Made by a program: the position numbers and the translations under genes
Origin: a virus
Strand: one strand, 5' to 3'
Virus record (IMG/VR): IMGVR_UViG_3300000101_003974
Span: 1 to 21,411 of that record
DNA length: 21,411 nt
Part shown: piece after piece, positions 3,692-19,153 of the stretch
Layout of the letters: each line of letters opens with the position of its first letter
Position numbering within the stretch: the stretch's first letter is position 1
The notes under the pieces: generated by a model
What the model was told of the DNA's origin: nothing
What the model saw: the letters and a program-made list of their open reading frames with translations, nothing else
Databases searched by the model: none

Positions 3692-4686
3692 TAAGGTTAT
3701 ATAATTTAGACAGACTGTATAAAGAGATACATAGATCCCTTAATAATGTTTCAGAAATGATCTTAAAATCAGGTCAAGTTATGCTGGGAGAATTTACACA
3801 AGAATTTGAACAAAGAATTGCTAATGTAGCAGGTACTAGATATGCGGCAGTAGTAGGCAGTGGCAGTGATGCATTATATTATGCATTAGTTGCAGAACAA
3901 GCACAAGGAGTTGTTGCCATGCCAGCGCAAACCTATATTGCTACAGCTAACAGTATTATACGTGCCGGATGTACTCCACTTGCTATTGATGTTAAAAAAA
4001 ATGGCTTAATGGATTGGGATCAAATTACACCTGACGTAAACGTTAATGCTGCAGTGTGGGTTGGATTATTTGGCAATACGGAGAAATTACCCACAGACAT
4101 TCCACTAATAGAAGACGGCGCACAACATTTTGGTACTCCAGTTCAGGGCAATACAGCTAGTTATAGTTTTGATCCTACCAAGAACTTGCCTAATTTTAGT
4201 AATGGCGGCGCAGTTGCAAGTCATGATGCATCGGTTATAGATCGAGTTAAAGAGTTACGCCGACATAGAAGAGTAGGCGAACACACTGGCGGTAACAGTG
4301 TTATGAGTGAACGTGACTGTGGTGAAATGCTGGTTAAGTTAGAACATTTTCCGTTTTGGACAGAACGTAGACAGGAAATTGCTAGAGATTATCATGCACA
4401 ATTAAGTCAGTATGTAGATTGCGTAACTCAACCAACTGGTCAGGTCAGTAAGTTTGTTATTGATACTCCTTATAGAAAAGAACTATCAAAATTTTTATCA
4501 TATCGTAAGATTGAAACTAAACGTGCATACAGCCAGCCGCTTGCTGATGTAGAACAAGCTGCATGGAATTGCCATCAATTTTTACAAATACCTTGCAGCC
4601 CGCACACCACTGATGAAGAGCTTTTAGAAGTTATACTTGCTATTAAAGAGTTCTTCAAGGAACCCCCACTCGAACGTGTCTTGTAA
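3688..4686 (+). CDS. DegT/DnrJ/EryC1-type PLP aminotransferase
   Basis: The family transfers an amino group from glutamate or glutamine to a keto-sugar nucleotide using pyridoxal phosphate. Residues GSGSDAL (57-63) match the cofactor phosphate loop, EDGAQHFG (142-149) the ring-stacking Asp/Gln segment, and SFDPTKNLPNFSNGGA the Schiff-base lysine region, with K165 as the likely catalytic lysine. At 332 aa it is shorter than the usual 360-400, mainly in the C-terminal small domain. It begins with an ATGA overlap with the previous gene. Its 3' end overlaps the convergent gene at 4624 by 63 nt. The product could feed glycan synthesis for host-surface or virion decoration (inference); substrate unknown. 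Confidence 0.88.
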   Translation: MIRLYNLDRLYKEIHRSLNNVSEMILKSGQVMLGEFTQEFEQRIANVAGTRYAAVVGSGSDALYYALVAEQAQGVVAMPAQTYIATANSIIRAGCTPLAIDVKKNGLMDWDQITPDVNVNAAVWVGLFGNTEKLPTDIPLIEDGAQHFGTPVQGNTASYSFDPTKNLPNFSNGGAVASHDASVIDRVKELRRHRRVGEHTGGNSVMSERDCGEMLVKLEHFPFWTERRQEIARDYHAQLSQYVDCVTQPTGQVSKFVIDTPYRKELSKFLSYRKIETKRAYSQPLADVEQAAWNCHQFLQIPCSPHTTDEELLEVILAIKEFFKEPPLERVL

Positions 4687-5865
4687 ATTGTTGCCGCTCG
4701 CTACATATACTCTAGCATAGGTAGCACCCTCTATACTCCACTCAGCATGCTCGCCTTCAGCTACAGTACACCATTGATCCAGTCTGTAGCGACTTTCTAT
4801 GTCAGTTTGCTGGGTAAGTTTAATACATTCTCTAAATGCTGTACGCCAGGTTTCATAAGGCGTGGTGTTAAATTCTGCAATACTGCCCACAACAGGAACT
4901 ACCCCGTGTCTGGCGCTTAGAGTAAAATCTAGTCCCCACTCAGTTTGCTCCAGTACCAGCTTTTTATTATAAGCAATAATGCCCATGTGGCCATACTCTA
5001 ATCCATTAACAGGATTGCGAGAATGAAAAATCCAGTGCTTGTCTCCTTGTAGCCAGTCTGGTTGCCAATTAAAGTCAAACTCTGGCAATATATTACACTT
5101 AGCAAACACATTAAAAAACCAGGGCGTTTCACTAACCTCTGCACATGCCTTGTACGCTTCTGCCCTGCCTGTAATACCTGATACCCACTTTGCTCTAGGG
5201 CAAACTTCTTTTAAGTTATTGTAGTTTTTAAGAGCGTTTTTTTCACCATTAGAAAGATATACAACATCTAGTGGCTGTTCTGCCATATTATGCTGTTTAT
5301 GACGCAAGATATAGGGATAGTCGTAGTATTGCTCATTAAAATGCGTTTTACAGTCCCTGGGCACTAGTAGTACACTTCCGCTTTTATTAAAAACGTGTAG
5401 ATTACGTTCTTTCCATAAACTAGGATCATATACTACATCTGCTGGTGTATTTTTAATCCAGGCATACAAGCTACTAATTTCGTCTAACGTGTTAACAGTG
5501 GGCCAGGGTTTGCGTGGCACACAGGGATCGGTATGCCAGTTGATGTGTTCGTACCACTCTAAGAGTTTAAGCCCAGCTTCTTGCTCTTTAAAAGCCTGTA
5601 CAGGCACTAAGAATGTATCACCAAATTTTTGGTTACCACTGGCCCAACAATGTATTTGATCTGCTTCCCAAGGAACTGGCTGCCAGGTAAAATCAAAAGT
5701 TGCATAGTTGCAACAGTCAGCTACAATCCAAACGTACTCAGTTCGTGATCTATTAACACACCTGCGGATGGTATCCAAATGTGTGCCGTTCCATCTAGTG
5801 TATTCTGTGTGTGCAGGTAAGTCTACTGGATCGTCAGTAATTTGCATACAAAAGATATCAAACAT
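4624..5865 (-). CDS. Two-domain glycosyltransferase-like protein with internal duplication
   Basis: The 413-aa protein consists of two related halves. Residues 27-92 (TRWNGTHLDTIRRCVNRS, then a FDFTWQP strand) match residues 230-303 (a VSGITGRAEAYKACAEVS stretch, then FDFNWQP), and each half has a similar order of strands. The layout resembles a marine-phage family I recall as hypothetical or glycosyltransferase-like. The second half also has RNPVNGLEYGHMGI and a LDQWCTVAEG segment. A DxD metal motif is not evident: the first half has VADCC and the second VFAKC at the matching place, so catalysis is doubtful. The start overlaps the preceding small gene by 8 nt. Its 3' end runs 63 nt into the opposing aminotransferase gene. 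Confidence 0.7.
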   Translation of the reverse strand: MFDIFCMQITDDPVDLPAHTEYTRWNGTHLDTIRRCVNRSRTEYVWIVADCCNYATFDFTWQPVPWEADQIHCWASGNQKFGDTFLVPVQAFKEQEAGLKLLEWYEHINWHTDPCVPRKPWPTVNTLDEISSLYAWIKNTPADVVYDPSLWKERNLHVFNKSGSVLLVPRDCKTHFNEQYYDYPYILRHKQHNMAEQPLDVVYLSNGEKNALKNYNNLKEVCPRAKWVSGITGRAEAYKACAEVSETPWFFNVFAKCNILPEFDFNWQPDWLQGDKHWIFHSRNPVNGLEYGHMGIIAYNKKLVLEQTEWGLDFTLSARHGVVPVVGSIAEFNTTPYETWRTAFRECIKLTQQTDIESRYRLDQWCTVAEGEHAEWSIEGATYARVYVASGNNLQDTFEWGFLEELFNSKYNF

Positions 5866-6681: not shown

Positions 6682-7983
6682 TTATGCAGCCTGCTTATGA
6701 TCATAATAAGCATAGTTGCCAAACGGAGGTTTAATAGTATCTGGACCATGTATAATAAACACTGTATCACAGTAGTGTTCGTCGCCCCAGCTACCACAAG
6801 GATAACCATCTGTAAACATTACAAAACGGTTAGGTTCAACTTCGTTGTCCCGCATAAACTGCCAGTTGCACTCAAACATGGTACCACCGCCACCCATGGG
6901 CTCGTAATCTAAAATGTCGTCTAAGTTATTGTTGTCAAACTCAGCATAGTTATAAACTTGAGTATCAAAACACCATAACTTAATTTTAAAGTCTGAGTAA
7001 CTTTCCATGATAGCTTTAATCTCTGAGAAGAAGTCTCTGGCTTGTTCGTTACTTATGCTACCCGACATGTCCACTGATATCGCAATATCAATTGTGTTCT
7101 CAGGAACCATACCAGGTAAGATGGCATCCATGCCCCAGGACTTACGGCTAGGACGCATAAAGCTATAATCGCTTTTAATACTGCTTTCAATTGTTTGGCT
7201 AAGTAGCTCATGCCAGTTCATCTTAGGCTCTGTAAGGTCTTTAATAATACGCTGTACACCGCCTGGAATATCGCCAGCACCGCCAGCTTGTTTAGCACTA
7301 TTGATCAGGCTCTCTTTAATCTCGTCTCTGATCTTCTTTTTGTCTTCCTCACTGTATGCTGGCTTGCTCTTGCTAACAAGGTTGCCATTCTCATCTTCTT
7401 CAGGCTTGCCACCGCCATCGCCATCCTTATCTTCATTTTCCAGGTGCTCATCCAGCAACATATCTGCAAGTTCATCTATGTTAATTTTCTCTGCGTTTTC
7501 ATAGATATCGTCGTATATCTCTTCCATGCTCATGTCATAGTATTTTACATTATGCAATGCAGGAACAGTGGTAATCATTTTACCAATCCTGGCCTTAACA
7601 AGATCACCATTTACAGCAAAGTCTGCGGCAATGTTAGCAATAGTAGGATTATGTAAATTAAATTTGCTACGGCCCAGATGGTCGTATACATTGTGTAAAA
7701 CTTCATGCCCAAACAAGAACTCAATCTCGCCTTTTTTAAGCATAAGGATAAATTTACTGTTATAGTAGAAGAAACGGCCATCTGTAGCCGCTGTAGGCAA
7801 CCAGGCATCTGCATTAACAAGCGGCAAACGTGTAGCCATGTTGCCAAAGAAGCTGGCTTTTAGCAACAGTCCTACACGGGCGGTTGTGAGCTTCTCGCGA
7901 GCCTCAACATCTTCAGCAGGAATAGTCTCGAATCCTACGGGAAGATCGGGCATATCTTTCTTGTTTGCAGTGGTAGTAGCCAT
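6682..7983 (-). CDS. VWA-domain protein with N-terminal metallopeptidase-like domain
   Basis: ATG 7983 is preceded by AAGGAGAG at a good distance; an in-frame ATG 18 codons upstream would place the start inside the promoter. The 433-aa product has an N-terminal domain with HEVLH at residues 93-97 followed by D101-H102, a zincin-like HExxH site. A low-complexity acidic linker follows (about 165-235). The C-terminal von Willebrand A domain has a MIDAS site: DMSGS at 305-309, GGGGT at 364-368 and TDG at 391-393. This is the DUF2201-type arrangement. Such proteins usually work with MoxR AAA+ ATPases, and a MoxR gene lies 3 kb upstream at 11097. The pair may act as a metal-dependent chaperone or remodeller. 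Its own promoter lies at 8010-8037. Confidence 0.88.
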   Translation of the reverse strand: MATTTANKKDMPDLPVGFETIPAEDVEAREKLTTARVGLLLKASFFGNMATRLPLVNADAWLPTAATDGRFFYYNSKFILMLKKGEIEFLFGHEVLHNVYDHLGRSKFNLHNPTIANIAADFAVNGDLVKARIGKMITTVPALHNVKYYDMSMEEIYDDIYENAEKINIDELADMLLDEHLENEDKDGDGGGKPEEDENGNLVSKSKPAYSEEDKKKIRDEIKESLINSAKQAGGAGDIPGGVQRIIKDLTEPKMNWHELLSQTIESSIKSDYSFMRPSRKSWGMDAILPGMVPENTIDIAISVDMSGSISNEQARDFFSEIKAIMESYSDFKIKLWCFDTQVYNYAEFDNNNLDDILDYEPMGGGGTMFECNWQFMRDNEVEPNRFVMFTDGYPCGSWGDEHYCDTVFIIHGPDTIKPPFGNYAYYDHKQAA

Positions 7984-8009: not shown

Positions 8010-8037
8010 ATAATAGCACATATAGCATGATTGTCAA
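8010..8037 (-). promoter_or_regulatory. Sigma70-type promoter for the VWA gene
   Basis: On the minus strand TTGACA (8037-8032) and TATTAT (8015-8010) are spaced 16 bp. A G-G pair precedes the -35, as in several other promoters of this window. The -10 ends about 26 bp before the VWA start at 7983. Confidence 0.72.
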
Positions 8038-8048
8038 CCATAATCTAT

Positions 8049-8489
8049 CTAATTTTGATTGCTAGGTGTAAGTGTATCTCCGTTGATCACCGTTTTAATT
8101 GCATGGCATACAGTGCAAAGAGTCTGTAGATTTTCGTCATTGTTGTTTTCATGATTGCCGTCTATATGATCTACAGTTAGCAATGTACGACACAATCGGT
8201 TGCGAACTTTTAAATCCTCCACATCCTGTACTCGATTGTCAGTGAGCGGAGTGTAACCACAATGTTCGCAATGAGTACCTCTATTTTGGCTATATGATTT
8301 TTTAGTTGTTGCTAACCCACCATAATCAGCTAGGTTTTTTTGGTGATTACGGCATAGCGTGTCACTGCCAGGTCCTTGATAGGCTGTGAGAAAATTCTCA
8401 CAGCCTTCGATGCTGCAGCGTGTCTTTCGAGCATTCCGTAATGCGGTTCCTTCTTTAAGAAGGTCTAAGTTAGGATCTCTAAGTGTCAT
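8049..8489 (-). CDS. HNH endonuclease
   Basis: ATG 8489 is one base after the stop of the upstream nuclease gene, with GGGGAG about 7 nt before it; the open frame upstream lies inside that other gene. The 146-aa product has two zinc-type clusters, C25-x4-C30 with C46-x2-H49, and C74-x2-C77 with C125-x2-C128. The HNH core is VDHIDGNHENNNDENLQTLC at residues 106-125 (D107, H108, N120), giving a beta-beta-alpha metal nuclease. It is the last gene of a three-gene unit with the PD-(D/E)XK nuclease and the DGQHT protein. It could be a homing-type enzyme, but tight coupling to the partner nuclease suggests a shared role. Confidence 0.9.
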   Translation of the reverse strand: MTLRDPNLDLLKEGTALRNARKTRCSIEGCENFLTAYQGPGSDTLCRNHQKNLADYGGLATTKKSYSQNRGTHCEHCGYTPLTDNRVQDVEDLKVRNRLCRTLLTVDHIDGNHENNNDENLQTLCTVCHAIKTVINGDTLTPSNQN

Positions 8490-8490
8490 T

Positions 8491-9081
8491 CTAATCTCCC
8501 CAGTTAAAAAGATTGTTGCACTCTGCATTTGATATACCTTCCATGCGTTCCATAATGTCATTAGGAATACGGAATTGCCAACTGGTATTTGATTGTTTTT
8601 CCAGCTGCATCCAGTCATCATTATGACGAATATATGTCTGTTTATCGCAAATTCCATTTTTAAGAATATTTTGAATATTCTTGTACGCTTTTTCAAGGTT
8701 ATCTTGAATCTTTGGCGAAGTAAAATCGTAAATTTGTTCTGATTTTACTACATTTTTGCAAGTGGTTACATCTTTGTCGTAAATTATCCTAAGTTGCGTT
8801 TGTAACTTGCTTCTTAAATAACTACCTTTCCATTCAGTAGATATAATATCTTTAATAGTAGATGCTCCTACTGTATGCGGACTATTGCTACTACGCATTC
8901 GTGTTTTAATTTCAGTAGCTAGATCAATTAAGTCTAATCCTTTGCCTTTATTAAGCCGGTGTCCGCCTTTTTCGATTTCATTTTCTGCCCACCGACCGAT
9001 ATTACCACAGCTCTGCTCCATAGGAATTACAGTACCAGGCTTCATAGTGTGTTTAACTGATTTTACTTTTATATTATTCAT
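8491..9081 (-). CDS. PD-(D/E)XK nuclease resembling MutH/Sau3AI
   Basis: The 196-aa product has a candidate PD-(D/E)XK active site: D50, then E57-x-K59, in GLDLIDLATEIKTR. The D-x6-E-x-K spacing is the one I know from MutH, and an upstream GRWAE (29-33) resembles the GQLLE helix that supplies the extra acidic residue in MutH/Sau3AI enzymes. The remaining two thirds (SSNSPHTVGASTIKDI onward) I do not recognise; they may bind DNA. The start overlaps the DGQHT gene by ATGA, and its stop is one base from the HNH gene. Nuclease assignment rests on motif reading only; specificity unknown. Similarity to GATC-cutting enzymes is suggestive, but GATC is common in this window. Confidence 0.66.
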   Translation of the reverse strand: MNNIKVKSVKHTMKPGTVIPMEQSCGNIGRWAENEIEKGGHRLNKGKGLDLIDLATEIKTRMRSSNSPHTVGASTIKDIISTEWKGSYLRSKLQTQLRIIYDKDVTTCKNVVKSEQIYDFTSPKIQDNLEKAYKNIQNILKNGICDKQTYIRHNDDWMQLEKQSNTSWQFRIPNDIMERMEGISNAECNNLFNWGD

Positions 9082-10310
9082 GCCCCTAACTCCTTGTCAT
9101 CAAAATCATATGCAAACCTACCAGTAAAGATCGGCAAGTCTTTGGAAAACCCTGCTTTGGCTATTGCCTGACAGATCCAAGTAGGAGCAACTTCTGTCTG
9201 ATTACAGCGGCTATTCAGTGTCATACGGACTTGTGAGTCCTGTCTATTAAACCAACTCTTGTAGGCACTAGAAACTAACTTGTGTTTAAGTTGTGAATTA
9301 GTATATCCCTTTGCCCAAGTGTTCTGTGTCACAGCGGCCAGATACTTGCCAAACTCGCGCACGTACTCATCGTCTACGACAATACCTTGCTGGTCGCAAG
9401 CACGGAAAATGTGTGCCATGTTGTCGATTTCCAGAGGCTCGATGGGCCTGTCTGCAAGGTACATGTTATGATACTGGAAAACACGCCGTAGCACACTACT
9501 CTTCCACTTAGTCACATCACGACCTGTAGGAAAAATTTCTGTAGGACGTGATACAGCACCAGGCTTGTCTGTGTCTCCAAACTTGTCATGCGTAAAAAAG
9601 CAATTGAACTCTTCTAGAGCGCACTGGATTTCTTCAAAACGCATGCTCCAAGGATCAGTATCTCCATTGTTTCGTACTGCCCATACGTACTGCATATACA
9701 AATCAATCTTGTCCAAGGGTTTGGTCATAGTGTTATCATGTACACCAATAAACCGTTTCCGTAACTTGGCAACATTTGTCCCTGGATAGATAGCTGTTGG
9801 TACTTCAAGTTCCATAGCGTCCTCAAAGCTCATATCAAATGCGTACATAGCAATGCAGAGCAAACTAAAGGCTGTATGCTGACCGTCCCAGATAGCAAAC
9901 AATTCTCGTTTAGCTTTGCTGGTTAGCACGGGATATAAGCGAATGATGTTAACAAAGAAAGGATCAAACTTGCCAACAATAGTCAGTACCCACTCAGGAT
10001 CAACTTCACGCTGAATAGTTGCGTTAAGTAGCATCTGCTTGAGTTTAACACGTTCACTTTTGTTAGCAGACATTTGCACCATGTCTGCATACATGTCAGC
10101 AAACTCTTTGTACTGAGGATTGCGGTCACGGAACTCCTTGCCTAATGCACTGAGAAAGTCTGGCAGGGAAGGATCTTTTTCAACAATAGCCTGGACAAAA
10201 CGCTCAGCCAGTTCTACAATAGTATCTTCTGTGGTTTTAAATTTTTCGTTAACTTGTTCTGCATAGCTTTGGGGCTTTGCTACGTATAGACCAATAGTGT
10301 CTTTTTTCAT
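9078..10310 (-). CDS. DGQHT-motif protein, ParB/DndB-like superfamily
   Basis: ATG 10310 is preferred over TTG 10343; GGAG lies 9 nt upstream. The 410-aa protein contains FDPFFVNIIRLYPVLT, then ELFAIWDGQHTAFSL (DGQHT at 142-146), then ELEVPTAIYPG. This order matches the core of the ParB/sulfiredoxin-like fold, including DGQHR proteins such as DndB. Those proteins bind nucleotides or DNA, and some regulate or modify DNA. Residues 160-410 are mostly helical and unrecognised. It heads a three-gene unit with a PD-(D/E)XK and an HNH nuclease, transcribed from the promoter at 10399-10427. A DNA-recognition or control subunit is a reasonable guess, not shown by the sequence. Confidence 0.72.
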   Translation of the reverse strand: MKKDTIGLYVAKPQSYAEQVNEKFKTTEDTIVELAERFVQAIVEKDPSLPDFLSALGKEFRDRNPQYKEFADMYADMVQMSANKSERVKLKQMLLNATIQREVDPEWVLTIVGKFDPFFVNIIRLYPVLTSKAKRELFAIWDGQHTAFSLLCIAMYAFDMSFEDAMELEVPTAIYPGTNVAKLRKRFIGVHDNTMTKPLDKIDLYMQYVWAVRNNGDTDPWSMRFEEIQCALEEFNCFFTHDKFGDTDKPGAVSRPTEIFPTGRDVTKWKSSVLRRVFQYHNMYLADRPIEPLEIDNMAHIFRACDQQGIVVDDEYVREFGKYLAAVTQNTWAKGYTNSQLKHKLVSSAYKSWFNRQDSQVRMTLNSRCNQTEVAPTWICQAIAKAGFSKDLPIFTGRFAYDFDDKELGA

Positions 10311-10398
10311 TTGTTGTACTCCGGTAAGTCCTAAAACGGACAATTAAATATGCCCTAGTACGGGCTATAAGTAAGACACAATGCCTTACTATTCATAC

Positions 10399-10427
10399 AT
10401 AGTACTTTATTTAAGACAATTTGTCAA
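10399..10427 (-). promoter_or_regulatory. Sigma70-type promoter for the nuclease cassette
   Basis: On the minus strand TTGACA (10427-10422) and TACTAT (10404-10399) are spaced exactly 17 bp. It lies right after the stop of the gene at 10432. The predicted leader of about 80 nt contains two inverted repeats: AGTAAG/CTTACT and GCCC/GGGC (10352-10365). Confidence 0.75.
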
Positions 10428-11096: not shown

Positions 11097-12212
11097 TTAA
11101 TCTTCCATAGCTTTAACAACATACTTGCCAAAGCGATCAAAGAACTCTTTGAAGTGCTTGAGCTTGTTAGCTTGGAATGGCAGGTTGTAGTTAGTAATTG
11201 CCATCCTAGCACCCATAACAGTCATTTCTGTTGGAAAATGGTCCATCATAAAGCGGAAGAAGTTATCAGCAAGGTCATGGAACTTTTTACTGTCTTTCTT
11301 ACCAAACTTGTCGTAAGCATCTTTAAGCTCATAACACATTCCAACAGTAAGAGCATATTGTGCTGAGATTTCCTTAACCTTCAATTCCTTAACTTTACCA
11401 GCAAGGATGTCTGTAGGGTTAGGCATGTCTTTAGCAATTTTACGGTGTGCCATAAACTTAATAGCAACACCTTCGCCTACGCAACCACTGATCAAGTCAG
11501 TTAGTTCGCTTTCTGAAGCATCATCTTCGTCTTCAAGGAACTCACTTACATAAGTCCAGCTACGTGGTGTTGCAAAAGAACGCCCACTTGAACGGGGATC
11601 AAAGTCACACAAGTCGCCTTTAGCAAACGAAATGTAACCAAGTACATCTTCATGTATCTTGTTTTCCACAGCCCAATTAAAATAGCTGTCATAGTCTACA
11701 CGAACTTCTAAGTGTACAAACCTGTTAGCAAGCGGAGTAGGCATTCTGTAAGTAACACCTTTGTCGCTTTCACGGTTGCCAGCGGCAACAATAACAACAT
11801 TGTCAGGCAATTTATATTGTCCAACACGGCGTCCTAGTGTAAGCTGATAAGCGGCCGCTTGCACGGCAGGAGCGGCACTGTTCATTTCGTCCAAAAACAA
11901 AATAACAGTATCAAACTTGCTAGCATACTCTTCGCTGGGAAGATCTACTGGAGGAGCCCATTCCATCATGCCTGAGTCTTTGTTATAAAAAGGCATACCA
12001 CGTAAATCTGTAGGCTCCATAAGAGCTACACGGACATCTAGCAGGGCAGTTTTGCCCAGTGTTTCTAATCTAGCAATACGTGTCATAAGTTCGGATTTAC
12101 CAACACCTGGCAATCCCCACAAAAATACTGGACGTTGCTTACGAAAAGCTCGGATAATACGAGTCTCTGCTTCTGCAAGTGTTACGGTACGGCTGTTAAC
12201 TGCTTCGCTCAT
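11097..12212 (-). CDS. MoxR-type AAA+ ATPase
   Basis: The 371-aa product has a complete AAA+ core: Walker A GLPGVGKS at 33-40, Walker B ILFLDE at 104-109, a sensor-1 segment AAGN at 143-146 and an LANRF arginine-finger motif near 164. An SGRSFATPRSWTYVSEF segment later is typical of MoxR proteins. MoxR ATPases remodel or mature other proteins together with a VWA-domain partner, and that partner is at 6682. The start has GAGGAAAA upstream, and a promoter lies at 12246-12273. ATPase motifs appear intact. The phage role is not known; similar pairs are found in marine T4-like phages (memory, unverified). Confidence 0.92.
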   Translation of the reverse strand: MSEAVNSRTVTLAEAETRIIRAFRKQRPVFLWGLPGVGKSELMTRIARLETLGKTALLDVRVALMEPTDLRGMPFYNKDSGMMEWAPPVDLPSEEYASKFDTVILFLDEMNSAAPAVQAAAYQLTLGRRVGQYKLPDNVVIVAAGNRESDKGVTYRMPTPLANRFVHLEVRVDYDSYFNWAVENKIHEDVLGYISFAKGDLCDFDPRSSGRSFATPRSWTYVSEFLEDEDDASESELTDLISGCVGEGVAIKFMAHRKIAKDMPNPTDILAGKVKELKVKEISAQYALTVGMCYELKDAYDKFGKKDSKKFHDLADNFFRFMMDHFPTEMTVMGARMAITNYNLPFQANKLKHFKEFFDRFGKYVVKAMED

Positions 12213-18214: not shown

Positions 18215-18321
18215 AAACCTACTTTCCTAAGTTTGTCGTCTAGGTCTTCGTCTACTACTGGTTTCGGAGTAGTATCTTTTTTGTCTTTAAGTTCCCCAGG
18301 CGTTTCCAAAGACGTCGACAT
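18211..18321 (-). CDS. 36-aa small protein between queE and the phosphatase
   Basis: The frame from ATG 18321 overlaps the end of queE by 35 nt and ends in an ATGA overlap with the phosphatase start. The product is polar and charged (TPGELKDKKDTTPKPVVD, then EDLDDKLRKVGL) and probably disordered until a short C-terminal helix. The frame is longer upstream, but that part is inside queE and not likely used. The ATGA coupling is the main reason to accept it. Confidence 0.5.
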   Translation of the reverse strand: MSTSLETPGELKDKKDTTPKPVVDEDLDDKLRKVGL

Positions 18322-19153
18322 GAAGCCTGGGGGAGTAACGATAGCCTTTTTTAAGCGCCAGTTCTGCGACATCTTTTCCGTTTTTAAAGTAACTTTCTGA
18401 TGTGCCTCCGACAGCCATGAGGTATACCGGTGCATTGACTCCACTGGATCCAAATACCGACACAGCCTTGTCAACTTCATCCACATCCACTGTATCACAA
18501 ACAACAAATTTGAAATACAGTTTACTGCCAGGAATATCGCTGTAACTACGAGCAATATCAGGCTTAATAGCGTCATCCCAATCATGTCCACTAACCGATA
18601 ATTTTGGGGAACATGACCATGTAACATGTAGTCGTTGTGTATTTGTGAGATAAGACTTGAAATCGTCGTGCAGAGTTTGTGTGGTATTTGTTTCAAAAGT
18701 AACATTTTTTAGATCCTTCATCCGGGGGTGTTCAAATAGTTCAGTATACATGCGTTGCCATCCTAGCAACGGTTCGCCGCCAGTAACAACAAGATGGATA
18801 TCTTGTCCATCTTCCTGCGTCCAGCATCCATTAGGTGTTAAGACTAATAAATCATCTACTAACCTGTCTAAATCCACATTGTTTTGGAACTTTTTAAATG
18901 CTGGATGCCAGGCTGCATAACTATCACAGCCTGTTGTTGCTAGTGGCAGATCATCTAATTTCTTATAAAGATGTGGATTTTTTTTAACTTGTGCTGCAAT
19001 GTCATCTGGCTCAGTAGTTTTCTGACCATGTGGTAATCCAAATCCTGGACAAGTAAAATTGCAACCGAACATACGAAGGAAGACACTGGGAACGCCAGTA
19101 AATCTTCCTTCGCCTTGTACGCTATAAAATGCTTCTGTATATCTAATCTTCAT
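18287..19153 (-). CDS. queE: 7-carboxy-7-deazaguanine synthase-like radical SAM protein QueE
   Basis: QueE converts 6-carboxy-tetrahydropterin to 7-carboxy-7-deazaguanine, a step to queuosine or 7-deazaguanine DNA bases. EAFYSVQGEGRFTGVPSVFL and FGCNFTC (C31, C35) are typical, followed by TGGEPLLG at 124-131 for SAM binding. The third iron-sulfur Cys of a simple CxxxCxxC is absent (Phe38); the best candidate is C76 in TGCDSY, so the cluster loop is enlarged. At 288 aa it is longer than bacterial QueE. Its start is ATGA-coupled to the SGNH-like gene. The QueD-like gene lies a little upstream. Family call is good, exact product inferred. Confidence 0.86.
   Translation of the reverse strand: MKIRYTEAFYSVQGEGRFTGVPSVFLRMFGCNFTCPGFGLPHGQKTTEPDDIAAQVKKNPHLYKKLDDLPLATTGCDSYAAWHPAFKKFQNNVDLDRLVDDLLVLTPNGCWTQEDGQDIHLVVTGGEPLLGWQRMYTELFEHPRMKDLKNVTFETNTTQTLHDDFKSYLTNTQRLHVTWSCSPKLSVSGHDWDDAIKPDIARSYSDIPGSKLYFKFVVCDTVDVDEVDKAVSVFGSSGVNAPVYLMAVGGTSESYFKNGKDVAELALKKGYRYSPRLHVDVFGNAWGT

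What the first reader, a model, noticed from the sequence alone, without database searches (positions are those of the whole stretch)
8049..10310. Three-gene cassette: DGQHT/ParB-like protein + MutH-like PD-(D/E)XK nuclease + HNH nuclease
Seen: three minus-strand genes joined by an ATGA overlap and a one-base gap, with their own TTGACA-N17-TACTAT promoter. The first has DGQHT at 142-146, the second D50-x6-E57-x-K59 plus a GRWAE helix, the third an intact HNH core. Known: DGQHR proteins include DndB of DNA phosphorothioation systems, MutH/Sau3AI enzymes cut GATC, and HNH enzymes cut DNA. Inference: the set could be a phage DNA-attack or self/non-self system in which the DGQHT protein senses or controls cleavage. 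I know of no described system with this composition.
Basis: partly seen in the sequence, partly recalled or inferred. Interest (0 to 1): 0.72.

Follow-up and report, generated by a model that had tools for sequence, protein, structure and literature searches.

The report
Phage ParB-fold plus nuclease gene pair
Many uncultured phages carry a small, swappable two-gene unit that pairs a ParB/sulfiredoxin-fold protein with a DNA-cutting enzyme, probably a two-subunit nuclease used in phage conflicts; in this phage an extra MutH-like nuclease gene has recently been slotted between the two.

Summary
In detail: three coupled minus-strand genes (DGQHT 9078-10310, 196-aa protein 8491-9081, HNH 8049-8489). 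The unit is really a two-gene core. Of 70 distinct DGQHT-family proteins from viral contigs, 65 are followed on the same strand by this HNH family, nearly all with overlapping or abutting ends, and 5 by a different nuclease-like gene. The middle gene lies between the pair only here and in one other contig, as a recent transfer (dS 0.09 against about 1.3 to saturated in neighbours). The DGQHT protein is predicted to have the ParB/sulfiredoxin fold and keeps the QR, DGQH and FxxxN motifs of GmrS/DndB, but the arginine needed for GTP hydrolysis in SspE is threonine in every member. The pair is a mobile transcription unit with its own promoter: a close relative has an empty site and others carry divergent pairs there. 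It was not found in Pfam, PHROGs, cultured phages or 85,000 prokaryote species genomes. Most likely it is a GmrSD/SspE-like two-subunit nuclease attacking host or rival DNA. No activity was tested. New variant of a known kind.

The parts
10399..10427 (-). sigma-70-type promoter (TTGACA-N17-TACTAT) of the cassette
   Evidence: comparable promoters upstream of 43/65 family loci against 5.4% of random windows
10328..10365 (-). 5' leader with two small hairpins (GCCC-GTACTA-GGGC, GTCC-GTTTTA-GGAC) just upstream of the DGQHT start
   Evidence: 3 of 4 pairs of the second hairpin show changes on both sides across 8 loci
9078..10310 (-). DGQHT protein (410 aa), predicted ParB/sulfiredoxin fold, GmrS/DndB-type motifs with Arg replaced by Thr
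10008..10013 (-). invariant Q100-R101 pair
   Evidence: 67/67
9873..9887 (-). D142-G-Q-H-T146 motif
   Evidence: 67/67 DGxHT; 28/28 end in HT in the set found without the motif
8491..9081 (-). optional MutH/Sau3AI-like PD-(D/E)XK protein (196 aa), recently acquired, overlapping DGQHT by ATGA
8905..8934 (-). D50-x6-E57-x-K59 active-site pattern
   Evidence: conserved in the 27% identical homologue L139:7577-8227; aligned to E. coli MutH D70/E77/K79 by a weak hhalign match
8806..8808 (-). K92, aligned with MutH K116 in a W..SH.R.KL segment
   Evidence: weak alignment
8049..8489 (-). zinc-finger plus HNH nuclease (146 aa), constant partner of the DGQHT gene
8103..8171 (-). HNH core D107-H108 ... 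N120 ... C125xxC128H129
   Evidence: H108 64/65 and N120 64/65, the remaining row gapped
8010..8037 (-). promoter of the following metallopeptidase-vWA gene, bounding the cassette
   Evidence: in the empty site L246 an equivalent TTGACA element follows the small ORF directly

Best explanation
The core is a two-subunit DNA nuclease carried by phages as an accessory cassette. The DGQHT protein has the ParB/Srx fold and acts as DNA- and/or nucleotide-binding sensor or clamp; the co-translated HNH protein is the cutting subunit. The ParB/Srx subunit most likely gates the nuclease, as GmrS does for GmrD and the DUF262 domain does for the HNH domain of SspE, so that host or rival phage DNA is cut and the phage's own DNA is spared. 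The MutH/Sau3AI-like protein is an optional second effector, recently captured. Shown: the genes, their near-absolute linkage, motif conservation, predicted fold, transfer and replacement as a unit at one site, own promoters. Inferred: complex formation, nucleotide gating, DNA cleavage, the biological target and how self DNA is spared.
For: Linkage: 70 distinct DGQHT proteins, 65 followed by this HNH family, mostly with ends overlapping by up to 9 nt or abutting, and 5 by other nuclease-like genes. Loci were found by DGQHT-protein patterns, so the HNH linkage there is not built in. Partner exchange while the DGQHT protein stays: an EHVIP gene in L142, L143, L164, L169 (resembles the (E/D)H(I/L/V)xP motif of GmrD, PMC4619093) and a DRIDN-type gene in L252; these partners are assigned by motif only. 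AlphaFold2 pLDDT 85; Foldseek: sulfiredoxin with ATP (prob 1.00, TM 0.59 by target length) and Noc (prob 0.90), but E 0.05-0.07 only; viral ParB/Srx entries E 1e-9 to 1e-5. QR, DGQH and FxxxN (N 57, H 10 of 67; H in the window) motifs of GmrS/DGQHR present. HNH catalytic residues conserved. Mobile unit: empty site L246, divergent pair in the same site in L242/L245, other cargo in L244/L247; pair in unrelated surroundings in L004/L005. DNA methyltransferase genes directly downstream in L119 and L152.
Against: The arginine needed for GTP hydrolysis in SspE (PMC13251355) is threonine in all members, so hydrolysis may be lost or work differently. No modification system is common to these phages: full-length QueC was not seen in 39 carriers. 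GATC is not avoided (79 against 66 expected), so an unspecific GATC cutter would need some protection of the phage DNA. No biochemical evidence. The HNH domain belongs to the general phage HNH group, which also includes homing enzymes.
Confidence: 0.5

Rival explanations
1. A homing-type mobile element: the HNH protein is a free-standing homing endonuclease that spreads the cassette between phages, and the DGQHT protein helps it bind DNA or regulates it.
For: Empty site, replaced alleles and other inserts at one position; blocks of raised identity limited to the DGQHT gene (W-L003 dS 0.40 against saturated neighbours) and to the middle gene (W-L006 dS 0.09); HNH related to the general phage HNH group; an HNH relative without DGQHT at the same site in L247.
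Against: A selfish nuclease would not need the DGQHT partner, yet no DGQHT gene was found without a nuclease-like partner and the nuclease family is exchanged while DGQHT stays. The cassette lies between genes, behind its own promoter, and the identity block covers DGQHT rather than the HNH gene and both flanks.
Confidence: 0.25
2. Host-genome degradation or nucleotide salvage early in infection, with no role against other phages.
For: Host-type sigma-70 promoter; the window holds ThyX and dCMP deaminase genes; ParB-like DNases in phages have been proposed to degrade host DNA (PMC5512222).
Against: Patchy presence and allele replacement within close relatives fit an accessory conflict gene better than a core step.
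Confidence: 0.25
3. A ParB-like segregation, packaging or replication factor with an unrelated HNH neighbour.
For: ParB/Noc-like fold.
Against: Nuclease or nuclease-like neighbour in 70 of 70 members; no ParA-like gene was seen among the coupled neighbours listed; absent from a close relative at the same site.
Confidence: 0.07

Closest known systems
GmrSD type IV restriction enzymes (GmrS DUF262 ParB/Srx; GmrD DUF1524 HNH)
   Same: ParB/Srx protein plus His-Me finger nuclease, in some cases as two separate genes; QR, DGQ-, FxxxN motifs; a few members pair with an EHxxP gene reminiscent of GmrD
   Different: No DUF262 or DUF1524 Pfam match; DGQHT instead of DGQQR; zinc-type HNH partner; found here only in viral contigs
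SspE (phosphorothioate-sensing DUF262-HNH effector)
   Same: ParB/Srx domain that gates an HNH nuclease (here proposed, in SspE shown)
   Different: Single chain; needs the DGQQR arginine for GTP hydrolysis; partner of a phosphorothioation system in a bacterium
DndB / DGQHR-domain proteins (TIGR03187/PF14072)
   Same: QR pair, DGQH- core, FxxxN
   Different: Arg replaced by Thr; no dnd genes seen next to it; no Pfam match
MutH / Sau3AI nucleases (PF02976)
   Same: D-x6-E-x-K pattern; divergent homologue L139 passes the Pfam cut-off (28.2 against 23 bits)
   Different: Window protein itself is below detection; optional part of a phage cassette; GATC specificity untested
Phage DdrB-like ParB DNases (PMC5512222)
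   Same: Phage ParB/Srx proteins proposed to act in conflicts

Membership tests
GmrSD | DUF262 domain (PF03235) | tested here: not met
   no Pfam match up to E 1
GmrSD | DGQQR motif with arginine | tested here: not met
   DGxHT in 67/67
GmrSD | QR pair and FxxxN motif | tested here: met
   Q100/R101 67/67; F187xxxN191 with N 57, H 10
GmrSD | ParB/Srx fold of the S subunit | tested here: met
   model pLDDT 85, sulfiredoxin and Noc top matches, modest Foldseek E-values
GmrSD | DUF1524 nuclease partner | tested here: not met
   partner matches HNH families; 4 loci have an EHVIP gene, without Pfam match in the two tested
GmrSD | NTP-dependent cleavage of modified DNA | not testable with these tools
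   needs biochemistry
DndB / DGQHR | DGQHR pentapeptide | tested here: not met
   R to T in all
MutH (PF02976) | match above curated cut-off | tested here: inconclusive
   window protein no match; 25-27% identical homologue L139:7577-8227 passes (28.2 against 23 bits)
MutH (PF02976) | D/E/K/K active-site residues | tested here: met
   D50, E57, K59 kept in the homologue; with K92 aligned to MutH D70, E77, K79, K116 by hhalign, probability only 4.7%
MutH (PF02976) | PD-(D/E)XK fold | tested here: inconclusive
   AlphaFold2 model from two sequences has pLDDT 43
HNH endonuclease | HNH core residues and Cys pairs | tested here: met
   Pfam HNH 37 bits in L138, 18.4 (below the 21.4 cut-off) in the window
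Homing endonuclease | cuts cassette-free allele at the insertion site | not testable with these tools
   empty site exists (L246)

The most novel reading that the evidence does not exclude
A virus-specific nuclease platform: a ParB/Srx protein with an altered catalytic site (DGQHT) that works with interchangeable nuclease subunits (zinc-HNH, EHVIP-type, DRIDN-type) and picks up optional extra effectors (MutH-like, other PD-(D/E)XK-like, DNA methyltransferase), exchanged between large phages as a self-promoted weapon cassette.
Probability: 0.35. Interest if true: 0.8.

Novelty: new variant of a known kind. Interest (0 to 1): 0.6.

Why it matters
ParB/Srx-gated nucleases (GmrSD, SspE, BrxU) are known as bacterial defences. 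A widespread phage-only branch would show phages wielding the same architecture, with a natural change of the arginine needed for hydrolysis in SspE, giving a direct test of whether hydrolysis is needed for gating. The family was found as 70 distinct proteins in uncultured-phage contigs and is missing from Pfam, PHROGs and the cultured-phage records searched.

Tried and rejected
AlphaFold2 of the middle protein (pLDDT 43) is unusable. Profile searches of PDB sequences gave no relatives of the DGQHT or middle protein. tblastn of the DGQHT, the middle and two distant DGQHT proteins in 50,697 cultured phages: none; the middle protein and its L139 homologue in plasmids, and that homologue in phages: none. 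Scans of 84,980 prokaryote species genomes: none for DGQHT or the middle protein; the middle-protein scans only reach near-identical relatives. 7-deazaguanine DNA modification as a shared self mark: only short partial QueC matches, rejected as a general feature. GATC avoidance as self-protection from a Sau3AI-like enzyme: not seen. PADLOC: no system match for the DGQHT or middle protein; HNH matches only the general ZorE/homing HNH group. Literature: no paper with DGQHT and none found describing this pair. Rfam and tRNA scans: none.

Full report
Observation. The three ORFs, their ATGA overlap and one-base gap, the DGQHT, D-x6-E-x-K and HNH motifs and the TTGACA-N17-TACTAT element are at the stated places. 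The promoter string by itself is at chance level for this region, but 43 of 65 related loci carry an 11-12/12 consensus promoter within 180 nt upstream of the DGQHT gene, against 5.4% of random windows. The window is a 21-kb virus record.

What is conserved. Searches of IMG/VR with the DGQHT and HNH proteins and their alignments and with the neighbouring vWA protein gave 70 distinct DGQHT-family proteins. In 65 the next gene on the strand is the same zinc-finger/HNH family, usually abutting or overlapping by 3-9 nt; in the other five it is another nuclease-like gene: an EHVIP protein in L142, L143, L164, L169 and a DRIDN-type HNH-like protein in L252. The scan used DGQHT-protein patterns only, so the HNH linkage is not an artefact of selection there. 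The assignment of the five alternative partners rests on motifs (EHVIP resembles the (E/D)H(I/L/V)xP motif of GmrD described in PMC4619093); Pfam gives no match for those tested.

The DGQHT protein. A 14-sequence alignment gave a good AlphaFold2 model (pLDDT 85, pTM 0.79) whose best PDB neighbours are sulfiredoxin with ATP (probability 1.00, TM 0.59 by target length) and Noc (0.90), with modest Foldseek E-values (0.05-0.07); viral ParB/Srx entries match at 1e-9 to 1e-5. Over 67 members, Q100-R101, D142-G-x-H-T146 and R184 are invariant and F187xxxN191 is nearly so (N 57, H 10; the window has H). These are the QR, DGQ(Q/H)R and FxxxN signatures that PMC4619093 describes for GmrS and DGQHR proteins, except that Arg is Thr. 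Because one search pattern contained the motif, I repeated the count on 28 proteins found without it: all still end in HT. In SspE that arginine is essential for GTP hydrolysis (PMC13251355), so the chemistry here may differ.

The HNH partner. D107, H108, N120 and the Cys residues C25, C30, C46, C74, C77, C125, C128 are kept in 63-65 of 65, with H or C at 49 in 63 and H or N at 129. The tree distances of DGQHT and HNH correlate (r 0.69; best of 500 permutations 0.15); shared ancestry of the phages contributes to this.

The middle gene. It occurs between the pair only here and in IMGVR_UViG_3300031696_001483 (L006). L001-L003, whose DGQHT proteins are 91-93% identical to the window's, lack it. 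Between the window and L006 the middle gene has dS 0.09 while the flanking genes have dS of about 1.3 to saturated, so it was transferred recently; its G+C is lower too (0.345 against 0.39 for the window). A 25-27% identical homologue lies at L139:7577-8227, overlapping the end of the HNH gene in a divergent DGQHT-HNH locus on a 172-kb contig, whereas the near-identical pair in L133 lacks it. That homologue matches Pfam MutH above its cut-off (28.2 against 23 bits). D50, E57 and K59 are conserved in it and a weak hhalign match places them, with K92, on D70, E77, K79 and K116 of E. coli MutH. Thus the MutH-like call is supported through the homologue, although the window protein has no direct Pfam hit and its own fold model failed. 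Among 50 large contigs searched, most of them DGQHT carriers, the only two copies are those beside the pair; the same association twice, at different positions, argues against coincidence, but copies elsewhere were not searched for sensitively.

Mobility. The pair sits between a small ORF and a metallopeptidase-vWA gene that, with a MoxR-like ATPase, is a known jumbo-phage pair (PMC7824862). L246 has the same neighbourhood with no cassette: a promoter for the vWA gene follows the small ORF directly. L242 and L245 hold a very divergent DGQHT-HNH pair in the same site, L244 and L247 other cargo. L004 and L005 carry the pair (66-67% and 74-76% identical) in unrelated surroundings. The DGQHT gene itself was exchanged more recently than its neighbours (W-L003 dS 0.40 against saturated or 2.6). 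The cassette therefore behaves as an accessory unit with its own promoter. Two loci have a DNA methyltransferase gene directly downstream (L119, L152) and L170 a protein similar to PADLOC PDC-S11, both in keeping with a conflict role but few in number.

Mechanism. Best reading: a two-subunit nuclease in which the ParB/Srx protein senses DNA and/or a nucleotide and licenses the HNH subunit, as in GmrSD and SspE, used against host or rival DNA. Shown: linkage, motifs, predicted fold, exchange as a unit. Inferred: complex, gating, cleavage, target. The main rivals are a homing element and plain host-DNA degradation. No common DNA modification was found in the carriers (QueC), and GATC is not depleted, so how self DNA is spared is open.

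Membership and novelty. It fails the Pfam and arginine criteria of GmrSD and DndB and is not filed in them; it works like them at the level of layout. It is absent from Pfam and PHROGs, from 50,697 cultured phage records and from 84,980 prokaryote species genomes as far as these searches reach. I rate it a new variant of a known kind.

Noticed in passing
window 10328-10365 (-) and leaders of L001, L003, L006, L008, L009, L014, L017: Small hairpin (GNNC-GTTTTA-GNNC type) just upstream of the ribosome-binding site of the DGQHT gene; 3 of 4 pairs show changes on both sides and the two hairpins are the only ones of this type with G+C-rich stems in the window. Possible autogenous translational operator.
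   Followed up: partly
L119:7565-8116, L152:6196-7068: N6/N4 and D12 (Dam-type) DNA methyltransferase genes about 15 nt downstream of the HNH gene in two DGQHT-HNH loci; suggests restriction-modification-like logic in some lineages.
   Followed up: partly
L170:2474-3319: Gene abutting the HNH gene whose protein matches the PADLOC candidate defence family PDC-S11 (E 3e-7).
   Followed up: no
L244:3471-4715: At the same insertion site a relative carries a protein that by eye is ParB-like (SGGHTR) with a sub-threshold NOV_C match, next to a YhhQ-like transporter gene (by eye).
   Followed up: no
window 6682-7983 (-) and 11097-12212 (-): Metallopeptidase-vWA gene (DUF2201) and MoxR-like AAA ATPase gene, the jumbo-phage chaperone pair of PMC7824862; an accessory-gene hot spot lies just upstream of the vWA gene.
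   Followed up: partly
window 18287-19153 (-): Looks like a QueE-type radical SAM protein by eye (YSVQGEG...CNFTC) but had no Pfam match at E 1e-4; possible 7-deazaguanine chemistry in this phage.
   Followed up: no
window 4624-5865 (-): 413-aa protein, about 80% identical in relatives but without Pfam match or relative among cultured phages.
   Followed up: no
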